Of a stretch of 64,000 nucleotides of DNA, positions 24,108-63,115 are shown piece by piece. A program made the translations under genes and the position numbers. Positions within the stretch are counted from its first letter, which is position 1; each line of letters begins with the position of its first letter. The notes under the pieces were generated by a model. The model was not told where the DNA came from. It did not search any database and was given only the letters and a program-made list of their open reading frames with translations. This stretch comes from Monoplex corrugatus (taxonomy: Eukaryota > Mollusca > Gastropoda > Littorinimorpha > Ranellidae), in assembly GCA_030674185.1 (NCBI GenBank), contig JAPXFY010000022.1:869535-933534 (forward strand). Direction: 5' to 3'.

Positions 24108-27100
24108 GAGCCTTGTGCTTATCGTAGCCCATGTGCTCGATCAACGCAGTGACGCCGCGGTTCCTGTAGGTTATCTCTTTGTGACAAATCATGCATCGTG
24201 CAACGCCATCAGCCTCAATGTTTCTAATAGAATCACCGACTTTCTCCGTATAATCCTTTCCGTTTTCTGTATATTTGACAGTCCTGGAGAGCCATTCCCA
24301 CTTCCAGGGGTTGTTACAATTATCTTTATAATTGTCGCGGCCGCGCTCGACAATGCGACTCACTGCCGCCATGTTGTCGATCAGAGGAAGTGAGCTGAAG
24401 GAATATCTCGTACGCCGCGAGATCGCCACAGTCGGAACCGCGACCAATTGAGAATGGGCCCTTTTGGGAACAGGCGGACATCGATCGATCTTTCTTCTTT
24501 CTTTTTTCGCTCGGAAATTTTTTTCCCTCGGAAACGATCTCAGCTTCCTCGGAAATCTAACGGCCGTCCTCTGAAATCCGCGGATCCGCGGAGAGTTCTC
24601 CACCCTGATATATATATGACGGACACAGACACACATACGACACATACACACACAGACATACACACATGACACACACGCACATACATGACACAAAGACACA
24701 CACACACAGAGGAACACACAGAGACACACACAGAGGAACACAGAGACACACACCATAAGCTCCTCATTAATAATCATCTTGCTGATGATGGAGTGGACCA
24801 CAGGTCTCTCCAGTTCAAACATCTGGGCCAGCAGAGGCAGGGACAGGGAGTCGTACACACTGCTGTAGCAGAACAGGTAGGTCCTCAGACTTTCCTCCTG
24901 AATCTTGGATGTGATCAGATCTCGCACCTTGTCCCGCTGGAAGAACAAGTCCCACACCTGGACAACACAACAGTACAACATGGTAATAAGTCATGGATTA
25001 GATCTGCACCTTGTCCCGAAGAACAGTCACCGACAACCCATACGGTTATGAAGTCAGGTATAGATCTTGCACCTTGTCCCGCTGGAAGAACAGGTCCCAC
25101 ACCTGGACAACACAACAGGTAACAACATGGTTAGTGATAAGGTCAGCAGGTGATTAGATCTTGCACCTTGTCCCGCTGGAAGAACAGGTCCCACACCTGG
25201 ACAACACAACAGGTAACAACATGGTTAGTGATAAGGTCAGAAGGTGATTAGATCTTGCACCTTGTCCCGCTGAAAGAACAGGTCCCACACCTGTTGTTGT
25301 TATACTATTTAAAGCCCAGCTGACTGCGCAGAGCCATATCAGGGCTATAACCGCCTCAAAACACACAAAACTTCAACAGGAGAAAAAAAAGAAAGAAAAT
25401 TAAGTACACATATCAATGCATTCGCGCACATAATCTACGGACATGCCCCCAGTGTTGACCACTCCGTCCAATTTATCGCACAGGGGAGATTTAAAAAACA
25501 AACCTGAATACAAATATATGCATACCTAAGGACACCAAAACATATATGAAAACAGGCATAATTTACCTAAAATTGCTTCCGCATATCTCACCTCCTTAGA
25601 GCCAAAAATGCACTTAATACAAGTACCCAATTATCAATCCCAAGAAAAAGTACATAAGACTTTATCGAACAATACAGGCAAATGGACCATTAAGGCAGAA
25701 AATGACAGGTAGAAATGACAGAAAGCAAAGCAACAAGGCAGAAACAAAGAGTGTAACAGAAAAGAGGAAATTTCTAGCACAGAATTTCCAGAAGGTGGAG
25801 ATACTATTTATACTGAAAGACCCCCCCCCCGGCATCCCCACGGGGAAAGGGTCCCACACCTGGACAACACACAATAGTAATGTTAATGATAAGGTCAGCA
25901 GGTGATCAGATCTCGCACCTTGTCCCGCTGGAAGAAAATATCCCATACCAGGACAACACACCACACAACAGGTAACACCATGGTTTATGATTCTGTCAGG
26001 GATACATCAGTGTTGTGTTGAAACAACCTGTGTTCTCACAAAGCAAACAAAAACATCACCACCGACGTGTACAATCACATCATCAGGATACATTACACTA
26101 CACTACAGCCATATCTTATCCAGAAAACATCACCACCAAATTGTACAATCACATCACCAGGATACATCACATGTGTAACCCTACAGTTATTTTCCATAAA
26201 AAAGGATACATCACATTGTGTAACCCTACAGTTATTATTCCATAAAACAAAAGGGATACATCACATTGTGTAACCCTACAGTTATTATTCCATAAAACAA
26301 AGTCATGTTTACAAACTGTTGATAATAGAAAACTGACATGGAAGACACACTAAAATTGTGGGTAAATTGAAGAAGTTATTATTGTTGTCATTTTTGTTTA
26401 AAGCCCAGCCGACTGCGTAGAGCCATATCAGGGCTACAACCATATTAAAACATGCACAATACTTCAACAAAGAAGAAAGAGGAAAAGAAAATTAAGTACA
26501 AACATCAATCCATTCGCACACATAATCAAAGGAGATGTGCTTGGCATTGACCAATCCATCCAATTTATTACACAAGGGATTTAAAAAACACACCTGAATA
26601 CAAATGTAAACATAATTAAGGACACTAAAACGTATATAAAAACAGGCCTAAATTACTTGAAAGGGCTTTCGCATAGCACACTTCCCTAGAGCCAAAAATG
26701 CACTTAATACATGCACTCAATTATCAATCCTAAGAGAAAGTATGCAAGACCTTTTCGGCCACATACAGGTGAACTGACCAGCAAGGCAGAAGATGATAGG
26801 AAGAAACAACAAAAGCAAAGGAAGAAGACAGAAACAAAGAGAGTGACAGAAAAGAGGAAATTCCTAGCACAGACCTTCCAGAAGATGGTGATACTGTTTA
26901 CACTGAAAGAACCCCCAGCATCCCCACGGGGAGCCACTGACAAGTCTACAGTGACCTCAGCCACTGGTTTAGTCTACCACACACTGTTTAACCACGGGGA
27001 GAACACTGACAAGTCTACAGTGACCTCAGCCACTGGTTTAGTCTACCACACACTGTTAACCCTTTGACTCCCGCACCCTATCCACCAACTGCAAAAACGT

Positions 27101-37722: not shown

Positions 37723-40700
37723 AATGATGATGAAGACAAACAAGAGACAGGTGTGCAAGTCTTCCATTCACGGCAAGGTAAGGGGGCAAGTGTTGAAAAG
37801 TCTTCCATTCATGGCAAGGTAAGGGGTCAAGTGTTGAAAAGTCTTCCATTCATGGCAAGGTAAGGGGCAAGTGTTGAAAAGTCTTCTATTCACGGCAAGG
37901 TAAGGGGGCAAGAGTTGAAAAGTCTCCCATTCACGGCAAGGTAAGGGGGCAAGTGTTGAAAAGTCTTCCATTCATGGCAAGGTAAGGGGGCAAGTGTTGA
38001 AAAGTCTTCCATTCATGGCAAGGTAAGGGGGCAAGTGTTGAAAAGTCTTCCATTCATGGCAGAGTAAGGGGCAAGTGTTGAAAAGTCTTCCATTCACGGC
38101 AGAGTAACGGGCAAGTGTTGAAAAGTCTTCCATTCCTGGCAAGGTAAGGGGTCAAGTGTTGAAAAGTCTTCCATTCATGGCAAGGTAAGGGGCAAGTGTT
38201 GAAAAGTCTTCCATTCGTGGCAAGGTAAGGGTGACATATCTATGTATGGCAGACACAATACAATCGATACCATGAAGACACAACTCACAGGGTGACATAT
38301 CTATGTATGACAGACACAATACAATACAATCGATACCATGAAGACACAACTCACAGGGTGACATATCTATGTATGGCAGACACAATACAATACAATCGAT
38401 ACCATGAAGACACAACTCACAGGGTGACATATCTATGTGTGGCAGACACAATACAATCGATACCATGAAGACACAACTCACAGGTTGATATATCTATGTA
38501 TGGCAGACACAATACATTCGATACCATGAAGACACAACTCACAGGGTGACATATCTATGTATGACAGACACAATACAATACAATCGATACCATGAAGACA
38601 CAACTCACAGGGTGACATATCTATGTATGGCAGACACAATACAATACAATCGATACCATGAAGACACAACTCACAGGGTGACATATCTATGTATGGCAGA
38701 CACAATACAATACAATCGATACCATGAAGACACAACTCACAGGGTGACATATCTATGTATGGCAGACACAATACAATACAATCGATACCATGAAGACACA
38801 ACTCACAGGGTGACATATCTATGTATGGCAGACACAATACAATACAATCGATACCATGAAGACACAACTCACAGGGTGACATATCTATGTATGGCAGACA
38901 CAATACAATACAATCGATACCATGAAGACACAACTCACAGGGTGACATATCTATGTGTGGCAGACACAATACATTACAATCGATACCATGAAGACACAAC
39001 TCACAGGGTGACATATCTATGTATGGCAGACACAATACAATACAATCGATACCATGAAGACACAACTCACAGGGTGACATATCTATGTATGGCAGACACA
39101 ATACAATACAATCGATACCATGAAGACACAACTCACAGGGTGACATATCTATGTATGACAGACACAATACAATACAATCGATACCATGAAGACACAACTC
39201 ACAGGGTGACATATCTATGTATGGCAGACACAATACAATACAATCGATACCATGAAGACACAACTCACAGGGTGACATATCTATGTATGGCAGACACAAT
39301 ACAATACAATCGATACCATGAAGACACAACTCACAGGGTGACATATCTATGTATGACAGACACAATACAATCGATACCATGAAGACACACAGCACATAAC
39401 ATACCTGCCATATTAGGTATACTGTGCCATATTAGGTATCTGTGTCAGACACACAGTACAGTAATGTACCTGCCATACTAGGTATACTGTGCCATATTAG
39501 GTATCTGTGTCAGACACACAGTACAGTAATGTACCTGCCATACTAGGTATACTGTGCCATATTAGGTATCTGTGTCAGACACACAGTACATAACATACCT
39601 GCCATACTAGGTATACTGTGCCATATTAGGTATCTGTGTCAAACACACAGTACAGTAACATACCTGCCATACCAGGAACACTGTGCCATATTAGGTATCT
39701 GTGTCAGATACACAGTAATGTACCTGCCATACTAGGTATACTGTGCCATATTAGGTATCTGTCAAACACACAGTACAGTAATGTACCTGCCATACTAGTT
39801 ATACTGTGCCATATTAGGTATCTGTGTCAGACACACAGTAATGTACCTGCCATACTAGGTATACTGTGCATATTAGGTATCTGTGTCAGACACACAGTAA
39901 TGTACCTGCCATACTAGGTATACTGTGCCATATTAGGTATCTGTGCCAAACACACAGTACAGTAATGTACCTGCCATACTAGGTATACTGTGCCATATTA
40001 GGTATCTGTGTCAGACACACAGTACAGTAACGTACCTGCCATACTAGGTATACTGTGCCATATTAGGTATCTGTGTCAGACACACAGTACAGTAACGTAC
40101 CTGCCATACTAGGTATACTGTGCCATATTAGGTATCTGTGTCAGACACACAGTAATGTACCTGCCATACTAGGTATACTGTGCCATATTAGTTATCTGTG
40201 CCAAACACACAGTACAGTAATGTACCTGCCATACTAGGTACACTGTGCCATATTAGGTATCTGTGTCAAACACACAGTAATGTACCTGCCATACTAGGTG
40301 TACTGTGCCATATTAGGTATCTGTGTCAGACACACAGTAATGTACCTGCCATACTAGGTATACTGTGCCATATTAGGTATCTGTCAGACATACAGTACAG
40401 TAACGTACCTGCCATACTAGGTATACTGTGCAATATTAGGTATCTGTCAGACATACAGTACAGTAATGTACCTGCCATACTAGGTATACTGTGCCATATT
40501 AGATATCTGTGTCAAACACACAGTACATTAACGTACCTGCCATACTAGGTATACTGTGCCATATTAGGTATCTGTGTCAGACACACAGTAATGTACCTGC
40601 CATACTAGGTATACTGTGCCATATTAGGTATCTGTCAGACATACAGTACAGTAATGTACCTGCCATACTAGGTATACTGTGCAATATTAGGTATCTGTCA

Positions 40701-43700
40701 GACATACAGTACAGTAATGTACCTGCCATACTAGGTATACTGTGCCATATTAGATATCTGTGTCAAACACACAGTACAGTAACGTACCTGCCATACTAGG
40801 TATACTGTGCCATATTAGGTATCTGTGTCAGACACACAGTACAGTAACGTACCTGCCATACTAGGTATACTGTGCCATATTAGGTATCTGTGTCAGACAC
40901 ACAGTACATAACGTACCTGCCATACCAGGTATACTGTGCCATATTAGGTATCTGTGTCAGACACAGTAATGTACCTGCCATACTAGGTATACTGTGCCAT
41001 ATTAGGTATCTGTGTCAAACACACAGTAACGTACCTGCCATACTAGGTATACTGTGCCATATTAGGTATCTGTGTCAAACACAGTAACGTACCTGCCATA
41101 CTAGGTATACTGTGCCATATTAGGTATCTGTGTCAAACACACAGTAACGTACCTGCCATACTAGGTATACTGTGCCATATTAGGTATCTGTGTCAAACAC
41201 ACAGTACAGTAATGTACCTGCCATACTAGGTATACTGTGCCATATTAGGTATCTGTGTCAGACACACAGTACAGTAATGTACCTGCCATACTAGGTATAC
41301 TGTGCCATATTAGGTATCTGTGTCAGACACACAGTACAGTAACGTACCTGCCATACTAGGTATACTGTGCCATATTAGGTATCTGTCAGACACACAGTAC
41401 AGTAATGTACCTGCCATACTAGGTATACTGTGCCATATTAGGTATCTGTGTAAAACACATAGTACAGTAATGTACCTGCCATACTAGGTATACTGTGCCA
41501 TATTAGGTATCTGTGCCAGACACACAGTACATAACATACCTGCCATACTAGGTATACTGTGCCATATTAGGTATCTGTGTCAGACACACAGTACATAACG
41601 TACCTGCCATACCAGGTATACTGTGCCATATTAGGCATCTGTGTCAGACACACAGTAATGTACCTGCCATACTAGGTATATTGTGCCATATTAGGTATCT
41701 GTGTCAAACACACAGTACATAACATACCTGCCATACTAGGTATACTGTGCCATATTAGGTATCTGTGTCAGACACACAGTAATGTACCTGCCATACCAGG
41801 TATACTGTGCCATATTAGGTATCTGTGTCAGACACACAGTAATGTACCTGCCATACTAGGTATACTGTGCCATATTAGGTATCTGTGTCAAACACACAGT
41901 AACGTACCTGCCATACTAGGTATACTGTGCCATATTAGGTATCTGTGTCTAACACACAGTAATGTACCTGCCATACTAGGTATACTGTGCCATATTAGAT
42001 ATCTGTGTCTAACACACAGTACAGTAATGTACCTGCCATACTAGGTATACTGTGCCATATTAGGTATCTGTCAGACACACAGTACAGTAATGTACCTGCC
42101 ATACTAGGTAGACTGTGCCATATTAGGTATCTGTGTCAAACACACAGTAACGTACCTGCCATACTAGGTATACTGTGCCATATTAGGTATCTGTGTCAAA
42201 CACAGTAACGTACCTGCCATACTAGGTATACTGTGCCATATTAGGTATCTGTGTCAAACACACAGTAACGTACCTGCCATACTAGGTATACTGTGCCATA
42301 TTAGGTATCTGTGTCTAACACACAGTACAGTAATGTACCTGCCATACTAGGTATACTGTGCCATATTAGGTATCTGTGTCAGACACACAGTACAGTAACG
42401 TACCTGCCATACTAGGTATACTGTGCCATATTAGGTATCTGTGTCAGACACACAGTAATGTACCTGCCATACTAGGTATACTGTGCCATATTAGGTATCT
42501 GTGTCAGACACACAGTAATGTACCTGCCATACTAGGTATACTGTGCCATATTAGGTATCTGTCAGACACACAGTACAGTAATGTACCTGCCATACTAGTT
42601 ATACTGTGCCATATTAGGTATCTGTGTCAGACACACAGTAATGTACCTGCCATACTAGGTATACTGTGCCATATTAGGTATCTGTCAGACACACAGTACA
42701 GTAATGTACCTGCCATACTAGGTATACTGTGCCATATTAGGTATCTGTCAGACACACAGTACAGTAATGTACCTGCCATACTAGGTATACTGTGCCATAT
42801 TAGGTATCTGTGTCAGACACACAGTACAGTAAATAACGTACCTGCCATATATGGAATCTCCAGCAACATGGCGGACACCAGGTAGACACACTCCAGCAGC
42901 TCCAGGTTGATGTGCATGTGATAAGGCAACAGTCGTCGCTTCTCAATCTTCTCCTGTTCTGGGGTCCTCTCATGCTGACGCTGGGGAACCAGACCCTGGA
43001 CACAGCACGCATCACACATCATTACATAACAGACATTCACACACATAATGGACGCTGTCAGGTACAGTGACACACTGAATACACAACACGTGACACAACA
43101 TTAAATGAACAGACACATTCAGGGCGCTGTCACACACACACCGTGAGCAAGCACACATGACATATCATCACCACTCTCTGAAAGAACCCCCCCCCCCCCC
43201 CCCCTCACCTATCAGTCAGAAAAACATACACATGATCATAAACACTCATCATCATCACTCTCAGAGATATACACATGATCATAAACACTCATCATCATCA
43301 CTCTGACAAACTTACACATAATCATGAACACTCATCATCATCACTCTGACAAACTTACACATAATCATGAACACTCATCATAATCACTATCACTCAACTC
43401 TCTTATCACTCATACATAAGCATGAACACTCATTATCAGAATATCACTCTCTCACACACACAAGCATGAACACACATACACAGCGTCACTCTCACATACA
43501 TTAACCCTTTTGCATTTGCACTGCTAGATGTAAAGCTAGCTCCTAGTATTTGCATTCGAATGTACCACAGTGTCAGTACAAAGTCTTTCAGAAGTGAATG
43601 GAAAGTTCCTTGCATCCCAGAATGCTCTTACTATTTTTTTAGAACATTCAATGCGAGACTGACCAAGATTCTAACCACATGAGCGATAAGACAGCAAGGC

Positions 43701-46700
43701 CAGTAGTGATGGTAATTCCCACACGTGCCGGAAAAGGTCAGGCATTCTCAACCGCTATGAACGGATCGGCACATTCTTCTGCTGGCGGTTACCAGCTTTG
43801 TGAACAGCTAAGGGTTAAGTATGAACACACATTATTATCATCTCACACACACGCACAAACATGAACACATACATACAGTGTCACTCTCACATACATAAGC
43901 ATGAACACACATTATCACTTAAACATACACACACAAGCATGAACACATACATACAGTGTCACTCTCACATACATAAGCATGAACACACATTATCCAGGCT
44001 GGGGAACAGGTGATCCCAAAAATCTCTGAAAAATAGGCCAGGGTCCAGGAGCCGCCTAGGCCCCGGTGGGGTCCAGGGGCAATGCCCTTGGTGGGGGGCC
44101 CAGGGGGTCGAAGCCCCCCGGCCGAAATTGAATTCGAGCATTTTTGAAGACCCTTTCGTGGCCTCTCGTGATAGGCAAATTACCATGTGGCATGCAAAGA
44201 AACCAAACTAAAAACATCTTATTTACTATGCAGCATGCAAAGAAATCATACCCAAAAAAAAAAACAAAAAAAAACCCAACTTATTTTTCTACATTTTCTT
44301 GATGTACAGTGCCTTGCTTCAAAAGTTCAATGATTCAATCTTCACGAACAAAGTCCCCATAATGTTCTACTAAATGATGCATCACCCACAGATTTATTCA
44401 AATACTGGCATCAGTCTACTGAGTCTACATGTAGTATTGTATATAGTCAACACTCACTCCACTTTCTTGTATGTGTACTGCAGCCTTGGTCAACTGTTCA
44501 GTCTTCACAAACTGAGCCCCCTCTACTAATGATGCATCACCCTCAAACTTATTCAAAGTCAAATGAAAGGAAACAGTTTATAGGCCTACTTATCATAGTC
44601 AACACGATCTCTTCACACAGCATGGTAAGACAACAGGGCACAAAGGTTTATAAGTACACTATTTAAAAAAACTGACAAGAGAAGCCTGTTTTGTCTTGGT
44701 AGGGGGGGGGGGGGGGGGGGTGGCAGCCACAGATCCACTTGCACATCTTGGCCTTTCTTGTGGTCCTTTGCTGATTGTTTCCATACTGACTGATGGCCTC
44801 TCCAGCCTTGTTCACTTTGCGAATGCAAGTTGTAACTCGCTGATCGTAACCTGCCACTTTTGCTGACTTTTCAGTCCAGTCCCATCTCCATTTGCTGCTA
44901 ATTGATCCTTCGTCAAATGTCTCGCCACGATTTACGATGCGTGATACGCATGACATTTTGCTGATCGTAGACTCTAATGAAGCGTTAGACTCTTGTGAAA
45001 CATGCAGAAAATTGCTGCGAAAATTGTGTTCACAAATTGATGCGCCCGCCTCGGCAACAGTTTCATAAAACACGCGGAAATACCCTCACAACCGCGGGCG
45101 GCACTGCCTTGAAAAATGGTCTGATGAAAATCTGGACTGGAAATACTGGATACGGAACGGTAATGAACTCGGGAGTGATCAAGTCCTTCACGATTTTTTT
45201 TTCCTCGGCGGTTTTTTTTTTCCTCGGACCCGTTTTCTTTTTCTCGGAAGTCGCTTTGAAAAATCTCGGAAATCCTCGGATCCGAGGAGAGTTCCCCAGC
45301 CTGATTATCACTCTCACACACACACACACAAGCATGAACACATACATACAGTGTCACTCTCACATACATAAGCATGAACACACATTATTGTCACTCTCAC
45401 ACACACGCACAAGCATTAACCCTCTGACTCCCACACCCTATCCACCAACTTGCAAAAACTTAACCCTTTGACTCCATCACCCTATCCACCAGCTTGCTGC
45501 AGGAAGCCATGACTAGGGTGATAGAATCAAAGGGTTAATACCAACCTGAGCCAACAGCTCCTTGGCGCGATTACTGCTCTGAATGTCCACCAGAGCATTG
45601 TGGGCGTCACGCACATGACCCTGACGGAAGGCACACAAACCCAACTGTACCAGGGTACGATTGTACAGGATCTGTAAAATCAACACAACCATCTGTCAGG
45701 ATTGTCTCACACCTACAGGATTTGTAAAACACAAAACTGTCAGGATTGTCTTACACCTACAGGATCTGTAAAACACAACACAACCAACTGTCAGGATTGT
45801 CTTACACCTACAGGATCTGTAAAATACAAAACTGTCAGGATTGTCTTATACCTACAGGATCTGTAAAACACAACAACCATCTGTCAGGATTGTCTTACAC
45901 CTACAGGATCTGTAAAACACAAAACTGTCAGGATTGTCTTACACCTACAGGATCTGTAAAACACAACACAACCAACTGTCAGGATTGTCTTACACCTACA
46001 GGATCTGTAAAATACAAAACTGTCAGGATTGTCTTATACCTACAGGATCTGTAAAACACAACAACCACCTGTCAGGATTGTCTTACACCTACAGGATCTG
46101 TAAAACACAAAACTGTCAGGATTGTCTTACACCTACAGGATCTGTAAAACACAACACAACCAACTGTCAGGATTGTCTTATACCTACAGGATCTGTAAAA
46201 CACAACAACCACCTGTCAGGATTGTCTCACACCTACAGGATCTGTAAAACACAAAACTGTCACGATTGTCTTACACCTACAGGATCTGTAAAACACAACA
46301 ACCAACTGTCAGGATTGTCTTACACCTACAGGATCTGTAAAATACAAAACTGTCAGGATTGTCTTATACCTACAGGATCTGTAAAACACAACAACCACCT
46401 GTCAGGATTGTCTTACACCTACAGGATCTGTAAAACACAACCACCTGTCAGGATTGTCTTACACCTACAGGATCTGTAAAACACAACAACCACCTGTCAG
46501 AATTGTCTTACACCTACAGGATCTGTAAAACACAAAACCAACTGTCAGGATTGTCTCACACCTACAGGATCTGTAAAACACAACAACCACCTGTCAGGAT
46601 TGTCTTACACCTACAGGATCTGTAAAAACACAAAACTGTCACGAGTGTCTTACACCTACAGGATCTGTAAAACACAACACAACCAACTGTCAGGATTGTC

Positions 46701-49700
46701 TTATACCTACAGGATCTGTAAAACACAACAACCACCTGTCAGGATTGTCTCACACCTACAGGATCTGTAAAACACAAAACTGTCACGATTGTCTTACACC
46801 TACAGGATCTGTAAAACACAACAACCAACTGTCAGGATTGTCTTACACCTACAGGATCTGTAAAATACAAAACTGTCAGGATTGTCTTATACCTACAGGA
46901 TCTGTAAAACACAACAACCACCTGTCAGGATTGTCTTACACCTACAGGATCTGTAAAACACAACCACCTGTCAGGATTGTCTTACACCTACAGGATCTGT
47001 AAAACACAACAACACACCTGTCAGGATTGTCTTACACCTACAGGATCTGTAAAACACAACAACCACCTGTCAGGTTTGTCTTACACCTACAGGATCTGTA
47101 AAACCAACTGTCAGGATTGTCTCACACCTACAGGATCTGTAAAACACAACAACCACCTGTCAGGATTGTCTTACACCTACAGGATCTGTAAAACACAAAA
47201 CCAAGTCTGTCAGGATTGTCTTACACCTACAGGATCTGTAAAACACAAAACCAACTGTCAGGATTGTCTTATACCTACAGGATCTGTAAAACACAACACA
47301 ACCAACTGTCAGGATTGTCTCACACCTACAGGATCTGTAAAACACAAAACTGTCAGGATTGTCTTACACCTACAGGATCTGTAAAACACAAAACCAAGTC
47401 TGTCAGGATTGTCTTACACCTACAGGATCTGTAAAACACAAAACCAACTGTCAGGATTGTCTTATACCTACAGGATCTGTAAAACACAACACAACCAACT
47501 GTCAGGATTGTCTCACACCTACAGGATCTGTAAAACACAAAACTGTCAGGATTGTCTTACACCTACAGGGTCTGTAAAACACAAAACCAACTGTCAGGAT
47601 TGTCTTACACCTACAGGATCTGTAAAACACAAAACTGTCAGGATTGTCTCACACCTACAGGATCTGTAAAACACAAAACTGTCAGGATTGTCTTACACCT
47701 ACAGGATCTGTAAAACACAAAACCAACTGTCAGGATTGTCTTACACCTACAGGATCTGTAAAACACAAAACTGTCAGGATTGTCTTACACCTACAGGATC
47801 TGTAAAACACAAAACTGTCAGGATTGTCTTACACCTACAGGATCTGTAAAACACAAAACCAACTGTCAGGATTGTCTTACACCTACAGGATCTGTAAAAC
47901 ACAAAACTGTCAGGATTGTCTTACACCTACAGGATCCGTAAAACACAAAACTGTCAGGATTGTCTTACACCTACAGGATCTGTAAAACACAAAACTGTCA
48001 GGATTGTCTTACACCTACAGGATCTGTAAAACACAAAACCAACAGTCAGGATTGTCTTACACCTACAGGATCTGTAAAACACAAAACCAACTGTCAGGAT
48101 TGTCTTACACCTACAGGATCTGTAAAACACAAAACCAACTGTCAGGATTGTCTTACACCTACAGGATCTGTAAAACACAAAACCAACTGTCAGGATTGTC
48201 TTACACTACCTGATCATGGTGTATGTGTCTCTCTTTGTCTTACACTACCTGATCATGGTGTATGTGTCTCTCTAAGTCAATTTTTGATGTCAGTTAATTT
48301 TTGATGTCACATTCTGTCAGTTAACCTTTTCAAGTCTAAAACCACAGTTAATTTACCTGGAGATCCCAGTCTACCTAGATGTGGATGGTTTGTGCCTATA
48401 CACAGACCCCAGCCAATTTACCTAGGGACCCCAGTCTATCTAGATGTGGATGATTTGTACCTGAAGGAGCGACCACAACCAACTTACCTGGGTGGGAACG
48501 TCAGAGTGCTGGATGTTGTCCTGTAAGTGCGACATCAGCATGAGGTCACGGGCCTTGAACCAGCGGTCATGCAATGCATGATGGTAGATCTGGCACAGGA
48601 TGGCACGGGTACGTAAACGATCCGTGGAATCCTTGGCGTAGATGAACTTGCACAGTTTGTCCATCAGCTGCTCTGAGGTCACCTTCTGGCAGACAGACCA
48701 CATCTACTACATACACATTATTCTTTTGTAAACATCACATCATACCACATCTAACATACACATTCTTTTGTAAACATCACATTATACCACATCTAACACA
48801 TACACATTATTCTTTTGTAAACATCACATCATACACATCTAACACATACACATTATTCTTTTGTAAACATCACATTATACCACATCTAACACATACACAT
48901 TATTCTTTTGTAAACATCACATCATACCACATCTAACACATACACATTATTCTTTTGTAAACATCACATCATACCACATCTAACACATACACATTATTCT
49001 TTTGTAAACATCACATAATACCACATCTAACACATACACATTATTCTTTTGTAAACATCACATCATACCACATCTAACACATACACATTATTCTTTTGTA
49101 AACATCACATTATACCACATCTAACACATACACATTATTCTTTTGTAAACATCACATCATACCACATCTAACACATACATTATTCTTTTGTAAACATCAC
49201 ATCATACCACATCTAACACATAACCATTATTCTTTTGTAAACATCACATCATACCACATCTAACACATACACATTATTCTTTTGTAAACATCACATCATA
49301 CCACATCTAACACATACACATTATTCTTTTGTAAACATCACATTATACCACATCTAACACATACACATTATTCTTTTGTAAACATCACATCATACCACAT
49401 CTAACACATACACATTATTCTTTTGTAAACATCACATCATACCACATCTAACACATACACATTATTCTTTTGTAAACATCACATCATACCACATCTAACA
49501 CATTTCTTTTGAAAATATCACATCATACCACATCTAACATACACATTATTCTTTTGAAACATCACATCATACCACATCTAACACATACACATTATTCTTT
49601 TGTAAACATCACATCATACCACATCTAACACATACACATTATTCTTTTGTAAACATCACATCATACCACATCTAACACATACACATTATTCTTTTGTAAA

Positions 49701-52700
49701 CATCACATTATACCACATCTAACACATACACATTATTCTTTTGTAAACATCACATCATACCACATCTAACACATAACATTATTCTTTTGTAAACATCACA
49801 TCATACCACATCTAACACATACACATTTAATTCCTTTTTGTAAACATCACATCATACCACATCTAACACATACACATTATTCTTTTGTAAACATCACATT
49901 ATACCACATCTAACACATACACATTATTCTTTTGTAAACATCACATTATACCACATCTAACACATACACATTATTCTTTTGTAAACATCACATTATACCA
50001 CACCTAACACACACATTATTCTTTTGAAAACATCACATTATACCACACCTAACACATACACATTATTCTTTTGTAAACATCACATTATACCACATCTAAC
50101 ACATTATTCTTTTGTAAACATCACATTATACCACATCTAACACATACACATTATTCTTTTGTAAACATCACATTATACCACACCTAACACACACATTATT
50201 CTTTTGAAAACATCACATTATACCACACCTAACACATACACATTATTCTTTTGTAAACATCACATTATACCACATCTAACACATACACATTATTCTTTTG
50301 AAAACATCACCTGGTAATGAGTTATTTGGTTAGACATGTCACATTATTGTGACCTGGTGTGGATCATTAAGGACACTGACTGTAACTGTGCGTTGTGACC
50401 AGTTGTGACGACACATCGGTGTGGATCACAAAAATCATTAAAACGTGACCTTGAACCTCTCGTAATAATACGCTTTCCTCTTTCCTATTACTACTGCAGT
50501 GATATAAAACAAAAACTAAAGTCTACACATATCTATAAGTTCTATGGCAGCTTTCCTACAATATACATGTACACTTCACTTACCGATCTGTCTGTGCTTG
50601 TTTCAAAGGCTGTCTGATCAAACTGCAAAAACAAATCAGCGCCATTAGTTGCAATGTATACACTTTTTGTCCACTACCTATCAACAGAACAATTCAGAAC
50701 ACTAGAAGTCATATATTCACCAGTCTGTGTCACTTTCTGACAGATACTAACATCACCACAAAGTACTATAACTTTGTAACAAAGTTACAAAGTCGTCATC
50801 ATCATCATTAATATTATTAACATTTAAAGTTCAGCTGACTGCGTGGAGCCACGTCAGGGCTATATCCATCTCTAAACACGCACAACACTTCGATGATTTT
50901 TAAAAAAACAAAAGACACCTGGAAAATAAAATAACAGTATACCTCTCAATACAATCATGCACATAATCTACAGAAATGCCCCTAGCGTTGACCATTCCAT
51001 CCACTTTTATCACTACGGCATTTAAAAGAACTGATTCAAATGCATAAACAAATCTAAGTACATTCAAACATATATAAAAACTGGCCAAAATTCACTACTC
51101 TTGCTTTGGCACATCACAATTACTTAAACCAAACACATAATCATCATAAAGCAGTATAATTGTCTCCTGTCAACCAAACACATAATCACCATAAAGCAGT
51201 ATAATTGTCTCCCTGTCAACCAAACACATAATCACCATAAAGCAGTATAATTGTCTCCTTGTCAACCAAACACATAATCACCATAAAGCAGTATAATTGT
51301 CTCCTTGTCAACCAAACACATAATCACCATAAAGCAGTATAATTGTCTCCTTGTCAACCAAACACATAATCACCATAAAGCAGTATAACTGTCTCCTTGT
51401 CAACCAAACACATAATCACCATAAAGCAGTATAATTGTCTCCTTGTCAACCAAACACATAATCACCATAAAGCAGTATAATTGTCTCCTTGTCAACCAAA
51501 CACATAATCACCATAAAGCAGTATAACTGTCTCCTTGTCAACCAAACACATAATCACCATAAAGCAGTATAACTGTCTCCTTGTCAAACACATAATCACC
51601 ATAAAGCAGTATAACTGTCTCCTTGTCAACCAAACACATAATCACCATAAAGCAGTATAACTGTCTCCTTATCAAACACATAATCACCATAAAGCAGTAT
51701 AATTGTCTCCTTGTCAAACACATAATCATCATAAAGCAGTATAACTGTCTCCTTGTCAAACACATAATCATCATAAAGCAGTATAACTGTCTCCTTGTCA
51801 ACCAAACACACAATCACCATAAAGCAGTATAACTGTCTCCTTGTCAACCAAACACATAATCATCATAAAGCAGTATAACTGTCTCCTTGTCAACCAAACA
51901 CACAATCACCATAAAGCAGTATAATTGTCTCCTTGTCAACCAAACACATAATCACCATAAAGCAGTATAACTGTCTCCCTGTCAACCAAACACATAATCA
52001 CCATAAAGCAGTATAACTGTCTCCTTGTCAAACACATAATCACCATAAAGCAGTATAATTGTCTCCCTGTCAACCAAACACATAATCACCATAAAGCAGT
52101 ATAATTGTCTCCTTGTCAAACACACAATCACCATAAAGCAGTATAATTGTCTCCCTGTCAACCAAACACATAATCACCATAAAGCAGTATAATAGTCTCC
52201 TTGTCAAACACATAATCACCATAAAGCAGTATAATTGTCTCCTTGTCAAACACATAATCACCATAAAGCAGTATAACTGTCTCCCTGTCAAATACATAAT
52301 CACCATAAAGCAGTATAACTGTCTCCTTGTCAAACACATAATCACCATAAAGCAGTATAACTGTCTCCTTGTCAAACACATAATCACCATAAAGCAGTAT
52401 AACTGTCTCCTTGTCAACCAAACACACAATCACCATAAAGCAGTATAATTGTCTCCTTGTCAACCAAACACATAATCACCATAAAGCAGTATAATTGTCT
52501 CCCTGTCAACCAAACACATAATCACCATAAAGCAGTATAATTGTCTCCTTGTCAAACACATAATCATCATAAAGCAGTATAATTGTCTCCTTGTCAAACA
52601 CATAATCACCATAAAGCAGTATAACTGTCTCCTTGTCAACCAAACACATAATCACCATAAAGCAGTATAATTGTCTCCTTGTCAAACACATAATCACCAT

Positions 52701-55700
52701 AAAGCAGTATAACTGTCTCCTTGTCAACCAAACACATAATCACCATAAAGCAGTATAACTGTCTCCTTGTCAACCAAACACATAATCACCATAAAGCAAT
52801 ATAATTGTCTCCTTGTCAAACACATAATCACCATAAAGCAGTATAATTGTCTCCTTGTCAAACACATAATCATCATAAAGCAGTATAATTGTCTCCTTGT
52901 CAAACACATAATCACCATAAAGCAGTATAACTGTCTCCTTGTCAAACACATAATCACCATAAAGCAGTATAACTGTCTCCCTGTCAAACACATAATCACC
53001 ATAAAGCAGTATAACTGTCTCCTTGTCAAACACATTAATCACCATAAAGCAGTATAACTGTCTCCTTGTCAAACACACAATCACCATAAAGCAGTATAAC
53101 TGTCTCCTTGTCAAACACATAATCATCATAAAGCAGTATAACTGTCTCCTTGTCAAACACATAATCACCATAAAGCAGTATAACTGTCTCCTTGTCAAAC
53201 ACATAATCACCATAAAGCAGTATAACTGTCTCCTTGTCAAACACACAATCACCATAAAGCAGTATAACTGTCTCCTTGTCAAACACACAATCACCATAAA
53301 GCAGTATAACTGTCTCCTTGTCAAAACACATAATCATCATAAAGCAGTATAACTGTCTCCTTGTCAAACACATAATCACCATAAAGCAGTATAACTGTCT
53401 CCTTGTCAAACACATAATCACCATAAAGCAGTATAACTGTCTCCTTGTCAAACACACAATCACCATAAAGCAGTATAACTGTCTCCTTGTCAAACACACA
53501 ATCACCATAAAGCAGTATAACTGTCTCCTTGTCAAACACACAATCACCATAAAGCAGTATAACTGTCTCCTTGTCAAACACATAATCATCATAAAGCAGT
53601 ATAACTGTCTCCTTGTCAAACACATAATCACCATAAAGCAGTATAACTGTCTCCTTGTCAACCAAACACATAATCACCATAAAGCAGTATAACTGTCTCC
53701 CTGTCAACCAAACACATAATCACCATAAAGCAGTATAACTGTCTCCTTGTCAAACACATAATCACCATAAAGCAGTATAATTGTCTCCCTGTCAACCAAA
53801 CACATTATCACCATAAAGCAGTATAACTGTCTCCTTGTCAAACACATAATTACCATAAAGCAGTATAACTGTCTCCTTGTCAAACACATAATTACCATAA
53901 AGCAGTATAACTGTCTCCTTGTCAACAAAACACTTCAAGACGTTGCTATGTGCATACCTTAAAGTAGCAGTGCTCGATGCGGCGCAGGTAAGCACGACAG
54001 ACCTCCTCACTAGATCCCCTTTTCTCAATGTAGGCCTGCAAAGTCTCCAGCAGTCCACACACACGCTGCTCGTCTTTCAGTCTGTAAATAAAATGACCAC
54101 CATCACAAAGTGTTGCCATGTCTACAATTACATGTATAAAAATCACACCAACAGACTTCAGCCTGAAATATGGTATCACCTCCATCACAAAGTGTCGCCA
54201 TGTCTACAATTACATGTATAAAAATCACACCAACAGACTTCAGCCTGAAATATGGTATCACCTCCATCACAAAGTGTCGCCATGTCTACAATTACATGTA
54301 TAAAAATCACACCAACAGACTTCAGCCTGAAATATGGTATCACCTCCATCACGAAGTGTTGCCATGTCTACACTTACATGTATAAAAATCACACCAACAG
54401 ACTTCAGCCTGAAATATGGTATCACCTCCATCACAAAGTGTCGCCATGTCTACAATTACATGTATAAAAATCACACCAACAGACTTCAGCCTGAAATATG
54501 GTATCACCTCCATCACGAAGTGTTGCCATGTCTACAATTACAACATGTATAAAATTCACACCAACAGACTTCAGCCTGAAATATGGTATCACCTCCATCA
54601 CAAAGTGTTGCCATGTCTACAATTACATGTATAAAAATCACACCAACAGACTTCAGCCTGAAATATGGTATCACCTCCATCACGAAGTGTTGCCATGTCT
54701 ACAATTACAACATGTATAAAAATCACACCAACAGACTTCAGCCTGAAATATGGTATCACCTCCATCACGAAGTGTTGCCATGTCTACAATTACAACATGT
54801 ATAAAATTCACACCAACAGACTTCAGCCTGAAATATGGTATCACCACCATCACGAAGTGTCGCCATGTCTACAATTACAACATGTATAAAAATCACCCTC
54901 ACCTGTCCACAAACTCTGTGCTGTGAGCGTCACAGTTCTGCAGCATCTTGGTGAATTCCTCATCCAGACGTTCCATAACTGTCAGGATACAGCCCCGCAC
55001 ACGGTATGGAGTTGCCTGTGTAAACACACACACACACACACATATCACAATATATACGCAACAATAAATGTGCACAGATGAATATGTACTAGCAATGCCT
55101 AACATACATACACATGTACAAATGTATGGTAATAAATGTGCTCATATATAAAAAGAAAGAGGAAGTGTGTTTACACAGGACCTGGGCATTTTTGAAAGAG
55201 CACAGATGACACTGCCTGGAGGTGACTGCACCACAATCTCCATGATCTTGGACAAGTACCAGCCAAAAATAGAGCTGTCATGTGCCGTATTGCATAAGCT
55301 GGATAGGCAAAATGTATTACGCTTAATGTATACCTACAAACACGATTAACGATGAGCCAAATGCTAGATTATGATGCTTTGATGTATACATGTATACACA
55401 CAAAATTATACGATGAGCCGCAAGGTAGATTATGATGCTTTAACGTATACATACACACAAAATTATACGACAAGCCGCAAGGTAGATTATGATGCTTTAA
55501 CGTATACATACACACAAAATTATACGACAAGCCGCAAGGTAGATTATGATGCTTTAACGTATACATACACACAAAATTATACGACGAGCCGCAAGGTAGA
55601 TTATGATGCTTTAACGTATACATACACACAAAATTATACGACAAGCCGCAAGGTAGATTATGCTGCTTTAACGTATACATACACACAAAATTATACGATG

Positions 55701-58700
55701 AACCACATGTTAGAATGTATGACTCTTCATTTATACATACATACATGATAACACACTGAACCACATCACTGGCAGTCAGAAGTGGAAGTATGTACTGGTG
55801 GGCAATCAACTATGACACCAGCAACAGAGGGCCAGGGAGAACAGGAATGTCTTTTAACCATGACTCAAAGTGCAAAATGGCAGGCAAGAAGTCCCTTAGA
55901 TCAGATGGCAACAAGTTCCAAAAGATGGCGTAATGGAGCTGAAAGCATGTTCACCAGCTGACTTAACCCTTTGACTACTGCATCCTATCCAATAACTGCA
56001 AAAACTTAACCATTCGATTTCCTCACTCTAACCACCAGCTTCCTGCATGAAGCTGGTGGGTAGGGTGAGGGAATCAAAGGGTTAAATTTTCGCTTTGTTA
56101 GCATGGCTGGAAATGTATGATGTTGATGGACAGGGTGCAGGAGTCAAAGGGTTAAGACTACATACTGGCAATTCAAAAGCTGTTGAGGATCATAGGGTGT
56201 GTGACGTTTGATATGTACAGAGGTGATTTGATGGGTACGGAGGAAAAGATCTATCAACATGGTGATACGCAGGACTGGCAACTTTATACTGGCTGTCAGA
56301 TCTGACTGGCAACAAGTAGAGTTCTTTGAATAATGATGTTACATGATCATACCATATCTATTCATGATTTGACGTGCTGCATTATTCTGAACCCTTTACA
56401 GTTATGAAGTATGTTCTGCTGGTAAGCCAGCTAGGACAGAATTACACCAGTCTAACTGGGAAGTTACAACAGAATTACACCTATCTACCTGGGACATTAC
56501 AACAGAATTACACCTATCTACCTGGGACATTACAACAGAATTACGCCAGTCTAACTGGGAAGTTAGGACAGAATTACGCCAGTCTAACTGGGAAGTTAGG
56601 ATAGAATTACACCAGTCTAACTGGGAAGTTAGGACAGAATTACACCAGTCTAACTGGGAAGTTAGGACAGAATTACACCAGTCTAACTGGGAAGTTAGGA
56701 CAGAATTACACCAGTCTAACTGGGAAGTTAGGATAGAATTACACCAGTCTAACTGGGAAGTTAGGACAAAATTGCACCAGTCTAACTAGGAAGTTAGGAC
56801 AAAATTACACCAGTCTAACTGGGAAGTTAGGATAGAATTACACCAGTCTAACTGGGAAGTTAGGATAGAATTACACCAGTCTAACTGGGAAGTTAGGACA
56901 GAATTACACCAGTCTAACTGGGAAGTTAGGATAGAATTACACCAGTCTAACTGGGAAGTTAGGATAGAATTACACCAGTCTAACTGGGAAGTTAGGATAG
57001 AATTACACCAGTCTAACTGGGAAGTTAGGACAGAATTACACCAGTCTAACTGGGAAGTTAGGACAGAATTACACCAGTCTAACTGGGAAGTTAGGACAGA
57101 ATTACACCAGTCTAACTCTAGTAACTGGGAAGCTGGGACAGAATTACACCAGTCTAACTGGGAAGTTACAACAGAATTACACCAGTCTAACTGGGAAGTT
57201 ACTGTAGCAGAGACAAGTGGTTAACGTGCTGTTTTAGACAGATATAGTCTGACGGTGGCCATCTTCCACGACTCTGTGTTACTTCTGTGTTCTTGCCGTA
57301 ATCCCACAAATAATCTTCCTGACTTTCAAACAAAGTGTTGATGTGTTGTGCTTGTCAGTTTCAGTTTCAGTTTCTCAAGATGATATCTCCGTGCTCGGAA
57401 TGTATTCCAATTTCACTGATGTCACAGGTGCCATGTGATGGAGAAGATTCAGAATGATCATGGCACAAGCCTTAAGCCTGTACAAAAACCCATGAGCTGG
57501 CCAAGTCCTAAGCTCTTACCTTGCCTTTTTGTTTTTCATCTTACACTAGTAATGTATCAGTCTATCATCTGAACAATCTTAATTACATGCAAAACAAAAA
57601 ACAAGTGCATGTAAGCGAATATGTACATGTGCGTTTCGCAGGTGCACGCGCGCACACATATACATATACATGCAAGTGTTCACAAGTTATGTGTGCATAC
57701 ATCTACATACCTCTAAGCTCTCATTCTCCTCCAGTATGTTTTCACCCACCACCAGTTCCTCCATCTCCATCAGCATGGTCATCAGGGTGGTCAGGTTGTC
57801 CATACACCTGTTATCACATATCATATCATATAATATATCACATCTGTACAACACCTATACCACAGCACACATCACCAGGTCAGGTTGTCCATACACCTGT
57901 ATCACATATCACACCTGTATGGCAGTACACACCACCAGGTCTTCCATCTCTATCAGTACGGTCATCAGAATGGTCAGGTTCTCCATACACCTGTATCACA
58001 TATCACACCTGTATCACATATCACACCTGTATGGCAGTACACACCACCAGGTCCTCCATCTCTATCAGTATGGTCATCAGAATGGTCAGGTTCTCCATAC
58101 ACCTATATCACATATCACACCTGTATCACATATCACACCTGTATGGCAGTACACACCACCAGGTCCTCCATCTCTATCAGTATGGTCATCAGAATGGTCA
58201 GGTTCTCCATACACCTGTATCACATATCACACCTGTATCACATATCACACCTGTATGGCAGTACACACCACCAGGTCCTCCATCTCTATCAGTATGGTCA
58301 TCAGAATGGTCAGGTTCTCCATACACCTGTATCACATATCACACCTGTATCACATATCACACCTGTATGGCAGTACACACCACCAGGTCCTCCATCTCAA
58401 TCAAAATGGTCATTAGAATGTGTTATTATTAACTGACACTATTTTGACTGAACTCACAGTCCACTGTCAAACTGCAAGCAGAAATGAACAAAGGAAAAAT
58501 GAAACACATCGGCCACTCAACCCGCGACACGAACACAAACTTAACAACAACAGTTCAACAAGGTAAAGTTGAGGCCAAAAGAAATGCGGGCAGACCAACC
58601 ACCCCACACATGACCAACATCAGCAGCCTGACAGTCTACCTAGTAGCACAGAAAAGTCACGACAGTGAATGGAGGAGTGTTGTCACAAAGACTGTGAATG

Positions 58701-59792: not shown

Positions 59793-59867
59793 CTGCAAGG
59801 GCAGATAAGTCACTGTATCATCACAACACTATGTCACTGATATCAACTACAACAAATCACAACATTG

Positions 59868-59915
59868 TTATTGTTATTGTTGTTTAAAGCCCAACCAACT
59901 ACACACAGTCATATC
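59868..59915 (-). mobile_element. SINE-like family remnant (copy E)
   Basis: 'ttgttgtttaaagcccaac' plus 'caactacacacagtcatatc' is the terminal piece of the SINE-like family. A second copy of the same phrase begins at about 60765, on the other side of the LINE. Confidence 0.6.
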
Positions 59916-59944
59916 AACAACAATGAATTACACTGTTATTGTTG

Positions 59945-60755
59945 TTGTTACGCAGATGACACAGGATTACTGGCAGACAACATTACAGGCTCTAGGAGGA
60001 TCCTGTACAGGGTAGACCGGGTTGGAAAGGCAGCTGGGCTGGACTTAAATTCAAAGAAGACAAAGGTTATGCATGTTGCAGGCAAATATAACACTAGACA
60101 GGACCAGATCATGCTAAACCAAGTCCCTCTAGAAAATGTCAAGGACTTTAGATATTTAGGTTCAGTCAAGACACACGATGGAACATGCTCAAAAGACATA
60201 AAGATGAGAATTGGAATGGCCAAGAACAGTATGGTTCAATTGAACAATATTTGGAAAGACCACAGCATAACAGCAGACCTTAAGATAAAACTCTTAAAAT
60301 GTCTTGTCTGGCCAGTGATGTTATACGGCTGCGAGGCATGGACAATGAAGAAAGAGGATGAAAGACGAGTGGAAGCAGCAGAGCTGTGGTTTTACCGAAG
60401 ACTGCTGAGGGTCAAATGGACGGATAGGCGCTCAAATGAAAGCATACTGAATGAGTTGGGTACTACACGCAAGCTTCTAGTACTCATACAACGGAGGAAA
60501 CTGAAATATGTTGGACACGCAATCCGTAATGAGAGAACAGACTTGATGTCCACTGTCCTCCAAGGTAAAGTGGAAGGAAAGAGAAACAGAGGACGGCCAC
60601 CTGCATCACTTGCTAGAAACATCACAAACATCAGTGGCAAGAAACTCCAGGAGGTGGTCAGACTTAGCCAAGATCGAGAGTGCTGGAGGCAACTTGTGAG
60701 GACATCATGTGCAGCGGCCAACACTGTCCCCGGTGACGCCGACAGGTGAGACAGG
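59945..60755 (+). mobile_element. 5'-truncated non-LTR retrotransposon with an intact C-terminal ORF
   Basis: The frame is open from the reverse transcriptase motif YADDTGLLADN to the stop at 60747-60749, about 267 codons without interruption. Landmarks are DLNSKKTKVMH, VKDFRYLGS, LLKCLVWPVMLYGCEAW, LRVKWTDRRSNESIL, LKYVGHAIRNERTD and VEGKRNRGRP. The 3' tail is 'gacaggtgagacaggtg' then 'aggtgag'. Truncation falls right at the catalytic YADD motif, so it is not active. It is antisense to eIF3c and upstream of exon 1 of the window. The clade is uncertain. Confidence 0.9.
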
Positions 60756-63115
60756 TGAGGTGAGATTTAAAGCCCAACCAACTACACACAGCCATATCAG
60801 GGCTATAACTATACACACAGCCATATCAGGGCTATAACTATACACACAGCCATATCAGGGCTATAACTATACACACAGCCATATCAGTGCTATAACTATA
60901 CACAGCCATATCAGTGCTATAACTATACACAGCCATATCAGGGCTATAACTATACACAGCCATATCAGTGCTATAACTATACACAGCCATATCAGGGCTA
61001 TAACTATACACACAGCCATATCAGTGCTATAACTATACACAGCCATATCAGGGCTATAACTATACACACAGCCATATCAGTGCTATAACTATACACAGCC
61101 ATATCAGGGCTATAACTATACACACAGCCATATCAGTGCTATAACTACACACAGCCATATCAGGGCTATAACTATACACAGCCATATCAGGGCTATAACT
61201 ATACACACAGCCATATCAGTGCTATAACTATACACACAGCCATATCAGTGCTATAACTATACACACAGCCATATCAGTGCTATAACTATACACAGCCATA
61301 TCAGTGCTATAACTATACACAGCCATATCAGGGCTATAACTATACACAGCCATATCAGGGCTATAACTATACACAGCCATATCAGTGCTATAACTATACA
61401 CAGCCATATCAGTGCTATAACTATACACAGCCATATCAGGGCTATAACTATACACAGCCATATCAGGGCTATAACTATACACAGCCATATCAGGGCTATA
61501 ACTATACACAGCCATATCAGTGCTATAACTATACACAGCCATATCAGTGCTATAACTATACACAGCCATATCAGTGCTATAACTATACACACAGCCATAT
61601 CAGTGCTATAACTATACACAGCCATATCAGTGCTATAACTATACACAGCCATATCAGTGCTATAACTATACACAGCCATATCAGTGCTATAACTATACAC
61701 AGCCATATCAGGGCTATAACTATACACAGCCATATCAGTGCTATAACTATACACAGCCATATCAGGGCTATAACTATACACAGCCATATCAGTGCTATAA
61801 CTATACACAGCCATATCAGGGCTATAACTATACACAGCCATATCAGTGCTATAACTATACACAGCCATATCAGGGCTATAACTATACACACAGCCATATC
61901 AGGGCTATAATTATACACAGCCATATCAGTGCTATAACTATACACACAGCCATATCAGTGCTATAACTATACACAGCCATATCAGTGCTATAACTATACA
62001 CAGCCATATCAGTGCTATAACTATACACACAGCCATATCAGGGCTATAACTATACACAGCCATATCAGGGCTATAACTACACACAGCCATATCAGAGCTA
62101 TAACTATACACAGCCATATCAGGGCTATAACTATACACACAGACATATCAGTGCTATAACTATACACAGCCATATCAGGGCTATAACTACACACAGCCAT
62201 ATCAGGGCTATAACTATACACACAGCCATATCAGTGCTATAACTATACACACAGCCATATCAGTGCTATAACTATACACACAGCCATATCAGTGCTATAA
62301 CTATACACAGCCATATCAGGGCTATAATTATACACAGCCATATCAGTGCTATAACTATATACAGCCATATCAGGGCTATAACTATACACAGCCATATCAG
62401 GGCTATAACTATACACAGCCATATCAGGGCTATAACTATACACAGCCATATCAGGGCTATAACTATACACAGCCATATCAGGGCTATAACTATACACACA
62501 GACATATCAGTGCTATAACTATACACAGCCATATCAGTGCTATAACTATACACAGCCATATCAGGGCTATAACTATACACACAGCCATATCAGGGCTATA
62601 ACTATACACAGCCATATCAGGGCTATAACTATACACAGCCATATCAGGCTATAACTATACACACAGACATATCAGTGCTATAACTATACACAGCCATATC
62701 AGGGCTATAACTATACACAGCCATATCAGGGCTATAACTATACACAGCCATATCAGGGCTATAACTATACACAGCCATATCAGAGCTATAACTATACACA
62801 GCCATATCAGGGCTATAACTATACACAGCCATATCAGGGCTATAACTATACACACAGCCATATCAGTGCTATAACTATACACACAGCCATATCAGGGCTA
62901 TAACTATACACACAGCCATATCAGGGCTATAACTATACACACAGCCATATCAGTGCTATAACTATACACACAGCCATATCAGGGCTATAACTATACACAC
63001 AGCCATATCAGGGCTATAACTATACACACAGCCATATCAGGGCTATAACTATACACAGCCATATCAGGGCTATAACTATACACACAGCCATATCAGGGCT
63101 ATACCTATCTCAAAA
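60755..63115. repeat. 2.4 kb array of a 27/29 bp unit derived from the SINE-like family, about 84 copies
   Basis: The unit is 'acacagccatatcagggc' plus 'tataactat', with optional 'ac'. The first unit is continuous with 'tttaaagcccaaccaacta', the end of the SINE-like family. The two main variants are cagggct and cagtgct. Confidence 0.96.

What the first reader, a model, noticed from the sequence alone, without database searches (positions are those of the whole stretch)
54082..54902. Intron 3 of eIF3c looks like a tandem amplification of a whole ancestral mini-intron
The 821 bp intron is almost nothing but 82-85 bp units. Each unit, read on the - strand, has a donor-like end matching the true exon 3 donor context (GTG..GTGATTTTTATAC) and an acceptor-like end matching the true exon 4 acceptor (ATTTCAG|GCTGAAG versus ATTTACAG|ACTGAAAG). 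About 14 nt of exon-like scrap lies between consecutive intron copies. This would be intron growth by tandem duplication of an entire intron plus flanking exon ends, leaving serial GT...AG pairs that could be spliced stepwise.
Basis: partly seen in the sequence, partly recalled or inferred. Interest (0 to 1): 0.82.

Follow-up and report, generated by a model that had tools for sequence, protein, structure and literature searches.

The report
Snail intron filled by repeat array
A short intron of a snail housekeeping gene has been filled by an 82-85-base tandem repeat whose copy number varies; that each repeat is a whole copied intron is not shown, but neighbouring introns do carry arrays that copied real splice sites and exon ends, as described before in amphioxus.

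Summary
The array is real: intron 54082-54902 of an eIF3c gene (minus strand, caenogastropod snail) is 10 units of 82-85 bp, from 6 nt after the donor to 14 nt before the acceptor. A second, probably allelic, contig has 8 units (654 versus 821 bp). That each unit is a whole intron plus exon ends is not shown. The donor match is the array's own first unit. The 'exon scrap' (31-nt linker) resembles acceptor plus exon 4 at p about 0.04, the exon part alone at 0.08. Edge and internal cores differ by only 1-3 mismatches per 51-54 nt, so a linker copied at the same time should match its source well; the best alignments give 19-21 identities of 31, with many gaps. These match the 'mirages' known from amphioxus. 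Their number is about what random tandem duplication would give (4 versus 1.7 expected, P 0.09; 4 versus 4.2 under the same 8-nt rule).

The parts
54082..54902 (-).
   Evidence: GT..AG and in-frame joining
54096..54896 (-). Tandem array, 10 units (9 full, 82 or 85 bp; the last one partial, without the 31-nt linker)
54903..55015 (-).
53958..54081 (-).
57893..58420 (-). Junction-spanning array in intron a-b: 112-bp units holding the acceptor and first 64 nt of exon b (57711-57807); 5 copies of AGGTGTATGGA
45664..48206 (-). Junction-spanning array in intron e-f: units with TTTTACAG|ATCCTGTA, i.e. acceptor and first 8 nt of exon f (45546-45671); 50 exact decoys; the array runs into the exon
39383..42832 (-). 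Junction-spanning array in intron g-h: units with TATGGCAG|GTAC or GTAT, last 8 nt of exon g (42842-42995) and its donor; 55 decoys
25061..25293 (-). Junction-spanning array in intron h-i: 94-bp units with acceptor and first 41-47 nt of exon i (24754-24957)
25902..25963 (-). Isolated further copy of the exon i acceptor region and first 47 nt, about 950 bp upstream of the exon, 90% identical

Best explanation
The intron is an ordinary short intron taken over by a locus-specific minisatellite. An 82-85-bp stretch (51-54-nt core plus 31-nt linker) was duplicated and then grew and shrank by whole units, most likely through unequal exchange or replication slippage. The linker is not a recent copy of the flanking exon ends; it is either older intron sequence lost from the array's right edge or filler made at the founding duplication. 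Splicing presumably uses only the true outer donor and acceptor. Shown: array, edges, copy-number difference between two contigs, no match outside this locus and its second contig at the sensitivity of the search. Inferred: exchange mechanism, linker origin, normal splicing. In the same gene and genome, other arrays were founded by duplications that crossed a splice junction, leaving decoy acceptors or donors with attached exon fragments in the intron.
For: Window and second contig differ by 167 bp (82 + 85, two units), with identical first and last units. All 14 internal units in the two copies carry GGAGGT while the edge units carry GGTGGT, so internal units look homogenised and edges not. 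A 201-nt query gives 9 matches, all at this locus or on contig C6408. The linker matches the flanks poorly. All four introns covered by C6408 differ in length (C6408 minus window: -58, +160, -167, -933). For the neighbours: true junctions of four other introns recur in their own intron with scores 58, 75, 34, 34 against at most 23, 20, 22, 24 in any other intron.
Against: The own acceptor is the best of 11 in the anchored comparison (4.5, next 4.0) and the best of 10 acceptor queries in this intron (18, next 15). A simple tandem duplication should leave a linker derived from a flank, so an old junction-spanning origin with edges later overwritten by conversion is not excluded. Six units hold a core GT that scores 7-8 of 9, as high as true donors. 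No orthologous intron could be examined.
Confidence: 0.62

Rival explanations
1. One reading: the whole ancestral mini-intron with flanking exon ends was duplicated in tandem; the linker is diverged acceptor plus exon 4 start plus exon 3 end.
For: ATTTCAG|GCTGAAG versus ATTTACAG|ACTGAAAG in register with the last partial unit, p about 0.04; own acceptor best of ten in this intron, 18 versus 15; leaving the linker out gives a 71-74-nt intron, a plausible length (inference); real junction-spanning arrays next door.
Against: The linker has 19-21 gapped identities with its supposed source while edge cores differ from internal cores by 1-3 mismatches; exon part alone p 0.08 and donor side at chance; exon-only junction score not the best in this intron.
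Confidence: 0.2
2. Junction-spanning duplication in this genome is targeted to splice sites (for example by co-transcriptional breaks or R-loops), so that it is a special mutational process and not random.
For: 4 of 26 arrays in the gene span a junction versus 1.69 expected; 5 of 30 CCT loci versus 0 of 30 kinesin loci, Fisher p 0.052.
Against: P = 0.09 (0.13 with a 5-nt rule) in the window. In the 60-locus sample 4.2 are expected under the 8-nt rule and 4 of the 5 cases meet it. With a 16-nt rule 1.39 expected and 2 seen in the window, 3.49 expected and 2 seen (3 with L029, read later) in the sample.
Confidence: 0.15
3. The arrays are assembly artefacts (collapsed or expanded repeats).
For: Copy numbers of long arrays are hard to assemble in general (general knowledge).
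Against: Two contigs carry the same array structure with the same edges; exons a, b, c are identical between them and d and x differ by one base each, while unit number and variant order differ.
Confidence: 0.03

Closest known systems
[quoted passage not shown]
   Same: Tandem units span a splice junction and include exon nucleotides; both acceptor- and donor-side cases (PMC3087553 passages; PMC3902484 passage).
   Different: Here a caenogastropod mollusc; four introns of one gene at once and up to 50-55 exact decoy sites per intron. Haplotype length differences and normal splicing, reported for amphioxus, are not shown here for the junction-spanning arrays. The intron of the finding itself does not clearly meet the exon-copy criterion.
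Ordinary intronic minisatellites
   Same: Head-to-tail units of tens of bp, whole-unit length variation, internal homogenisation with distinct edge units.
   Different: Nearly the whole intron is array, up to 6 and 14 nt from the splice sites.
Intron gain by tandem genomic duplication of AG/GT segments (Rogers model, named in PMC3087553; potato RdRp case PMC4974935, seen only as search listing and start of abstract)
   Same: Tandem duplication brings splice signals along.
   Different: No new intron is shown here; duplications enlarge existing introns.
[D] stwintrons of Lipomyces (PMC7138796, passages)
   Same: Proposed to arise partly by small duplication of the donor inside an existing intron and to allow stepwise splicing.
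   Different: No functional internal intron is indicated here; splicing was not tested.

Membership tests
Mirage (intron of the finding, 54082-54902) | Repeat unit contains a copy of the adjacent exon end | tested here: inconclusive
   p about 0.04 anchored, 0.08 for the exon part; best acceptor in its intron with 10 intronic nt, not with exon alone; 19-21 gapped identities with the 31-nt linker
Mirage (introns a-b, e-f, g-h, h-i) | Repeat unit spans the true splice junction with exon nucleotides | tested here: met
   64, 8, 8 and 41-47 exonic nt; own-intron scores 58, 34, 34, 75 versus at most 24 in any other intron
Mirage (introns a-b, e-f, g-h, h-i) | Copy number differs between haplotypes | tested here: inconclusive
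   Contig C6408 covers only a-b of these four; the a-b length difference (58 = 2 x 29) fits the other, non-junction array of that intron, and the 112-bp array has about 4.7 copies in both
Mirage | Regular splicing despite decoy sites | not testable with these tools
   No RNA reads; five homologous proteins read straight across the junctions
Minisatellite (intron of the finding) | Tandem units of 10-100 bp with whole-unit copy-number change | tested here: met
Intron gain by tandem duplication | New intron absent from relatives | not testable with these tools
   No related animal genome is held (stated)

The most novel reading that the evidence does not exclude
This snail genome births tandem arrays so readily that splice junctions are repeatedly caught in them, giving natural introns with 50 or more exact copies of the working acceptor or donor next to real exons; correct splicing must then rest on exon definition rather than on splice-site sequence, and occasional use of a decoy would move exon boundaries. 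The named intron could be an old, eroded case of the same.
Probability: 0.35. Interest if true: 0.62.

Novelty: new member of a known kind. Interest (0 to 1): 0.42.

Why it matters
The four neighbouring arrays are natural tests of splice-site choice: identical sites, in two introns by the dozen, only one of which joins a complete exon. They show the amphioxus 'mirage' pattern in a mollusc, and the simple count made here suggests it needs no special targeting, only frequent tandem duplication. If decoys are sometimes used, this is a route to new exon boundaries and introns. For the named intron itself the lesson is cautionary: splice-like motifs in an array that touches both splice sites are partly expected by position.

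Tried and rejected
Rfam scan of the window: no match at gathering score. Whole-intron duplication for the named intron: tested by junction matrix, anchored shuffles and linker comparison, not upheld. Targeting of arrays to splice junctions: not significant. Higher array content around CCT than kinesin exons: medians 0.11 versus 0.06, Mann-Whitney p 0.29, not upheld. Borderline junction hits not counted as arrays: f-g acceptor, own score 20 versus at most 19 in other introns, and one single copy near d-x, E 0.002. The first expectation (1.25) used sub-periods as unit lengths and was replaced, with main unit lengths typed from the and 52 listings. The exon-only BLAST listed 5 of 60 loci; of these L051 and L068 are single short copies and were not counted, while L029 and L035 were missed by it and added after reading loci whose arrays overlap a match edge. 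L029 is diverged (by eye about 17 of 22 exonic nt) and L040 has only 5-6 exonic nt by eye, so it fails the 8-nt rule. L012 and L014 are long matches without evident introns and were left in the 60. Orthologous introns of related snails: none available (one search says the assembly has no relatives held).

Full report
WHAT IS THERE. The window is from a 3.02-Gb assembly (window = C22:869535-933534). Its closest eIF3c relatives among the 120 listed of 4227 hits are an unnamed protein on a 3.3-kb contig (92%), Nucella lapillus (91%), Littorina (89% over 92% of the query), Batillaria (88%) and Pomacea (87%), so I take it for a caenogastropod snail. Eleven exons, called a, b, c, d, x, e, f, g, h, i, j here, lie on the minus strand with GT..AG introns and join into one open eIF3c frame. 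Tandem Repeats Finder masks 61% of the window and 68% of the ten introns. The finding's intron is c-d, 54082-54902, 821 bp.

THE ARRAY. It holds 10 units: a core of 51 or 54 nt and a constant 31-nt linker; the last unit lacks the linker and runs into CATTTTATTTACAG and exon d; the first core starts 6 nt after exon c. Contig C6408 (11.7 kb), very probably the other haplotype, has the same intron with 8 units, 654 bp, first and last units identical; exons a, b, c are identical, d and x differ by one base each. All 14 internal units in the two copies have GGAGGT where the edge units have GGTGGT, the usual sign of homogenisation inside an array that spares its ends. A 201-nt query found nothing outside this locus and C6408 (9 matches), so it is not a dispersed repeat at that sensitivity.

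IS EACH UNIT AN INTRON? (1) Junction sequences of all ten introns were aligned to all ten introns. The c-d acceptor query scores 18 in its own intron, the best of ten acceptor queries there (next 15); in the other, longer introns the same query reaches 22. With exon nucleotides alone it scores 11, others up to 14 in this intron. The donor query scores 13, others up to 20 in this intron. (2) Anchored at the array's right edge, acceptor plus exon d start resemble the linker with 159 of 4000 and 181 of 4000 shuffles as good, 322 of 4000 when only the exon part is shuffled; exon d's acceptor is the best of 11 (4.5, next 4.0). The donor side is at chance, 3238 of 4000. (3) If the linker was made by the same duplication as the cores, it should be about as similar to its source as edge cores are to internal cores (1-3 mismatches and at most a 3-nt indel per 51-54 nt). 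It has 19 identities of 31 with acceptor plus exon d, 16 with exon c end plus donor, 21 with a half-and-half composite, all gapped. As to stepwise splicing, GT sites from the exon c end through the intron score 4 (34), 5 (35), 6 (8), 7 (6) and 8 (2, one of them the true donor) of 9; true donors of the gene score 7-9. The in-unit acceptor has 7 pyrimidines of 16, true acceptors 6-12. So serial splicing is neither indicated nor excluded.

WHERE THE IDEA IS RIGHT. The same matrix shows four other introns whose own junction is copied inside them: a-b acceptor (58, at most 23 in other introns), h-i acceptor (75, 20), e-f acceptor (34, 22), g-h donor (34, 24). The copies carry 64, 41-47, 8 and 8 exonic nt. 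Exact decoys number 5 (a-b), 50 (e-f), 55 (g-h) and 3 (h-i). Translated, the a-b and h-i copies read as the start of the exon. The a-b copies printed share most of their differences from the true exon, at 87-90% identity.

ELSEWHERE IN THE GENOME. The 30 best loci of 55 Cpn60_TCP1 matches and of 125 kinesin matches were fetched with 1.5 kb on each side. Arrays that reach across a junction were found in 5 of 60: L026 (donor, 28-bp unit with 18 exonic nt), L029 (acceptor, diverged, about 22 nt), L035 (acceptor, 14 nt), L036 (acceptor, 26 nt, in the GDGTTS stretch), L040 (donor, 5-6 nt, and one separate 69-nt exon duplicate) (exonic lengths read by eye). All five are Cpn60_TCP1 loci, in three gene regions; 0 of 30 kinesin loci (Fisher p 0.052). 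Three 10-kb stretches of two of these genes are 56-78% array.

IS IT TARGETED? If each array's founding unit falls at random in non-array intron sequence, 1.69 of 26 arrays in eIF3c should span a junction with 8 nt on each side; 4 do, P 0.09. In the 60 loci 4.2 of 96 arrays are expected; 4 of the 5 cases meet the 8-nt rule. With 16 exonic nt required, 1.39 expected and 2 seen in the window, 3.49 expected and 2 seen in the sample, 3 if L029, read later, is added. Short exonic copies were sought less sensitively in the sample than in the window. So frequent tandem duplication plus survival (the outermost copy keeps the exon intact) suffices. The count is small and rests on non-array length as the target size.

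KNOWN OR NEW. Junction-spanning minisatellites are the 'mirages' of amphioxus. I read passages of PMC3087553 and PMC3902484: both boundary types, AG/GT signals in many repeats, haplotype copy-number differences, boundary units exempt from homogenisation, no effect on regular splicing. The original Adh3 paper was not seen. Searches of the held open library (searches show 20 of 90 and 20 of 52 papers) listed no paper whose title or abstract start describes mirages in a mollusc; subscription papers are not covered. I therefore file the neighbouring arrays as new members of a known kind in another phylum, and the named intron as an ordinary minisatellite with an unresolved founding event.

Noticed in passing
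45664-48206, 39383-42832, 57893-58420, 25061-25293: Four other eIF3c introns carry arrays with copies of the true splice junction and adjacent exon nucleotides (mirage type), much clearer than the array of the finding.
   Followed up: yes
L026, L029, L035, L036, L040: Junction-spanning arrays at exons of Cpn60_TCP1 family genes in the same genome; L026 has about 20 copies (by eye) of a 28-bp unit made of 18 exon nt and 10 intron nt.
   Followed up: partly
51130-53925: The next intron (d-x), with this 42-bp array, differs by 933 bp between the window and contig C6408, the largest length difference among the four introns covered by both.
   Followed up: partly
59841-60749: Plus-strand open frame of 302 aa that looks like a non-LTR reverse-transcriptase fragment (YADD motif, by eye).
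   Followed up: no
5959-11625 and 60780-63108: Very long minisatellites (about 196 and 84 units by Tandem Repeats Finder) outside the exons studied here.
   Followed up: no
25902-25963: A single isolated copy of the exon i acceptor region and start lies about 950 bp upstream of the exon, outside the 94-bp array.
   Followed up: partly
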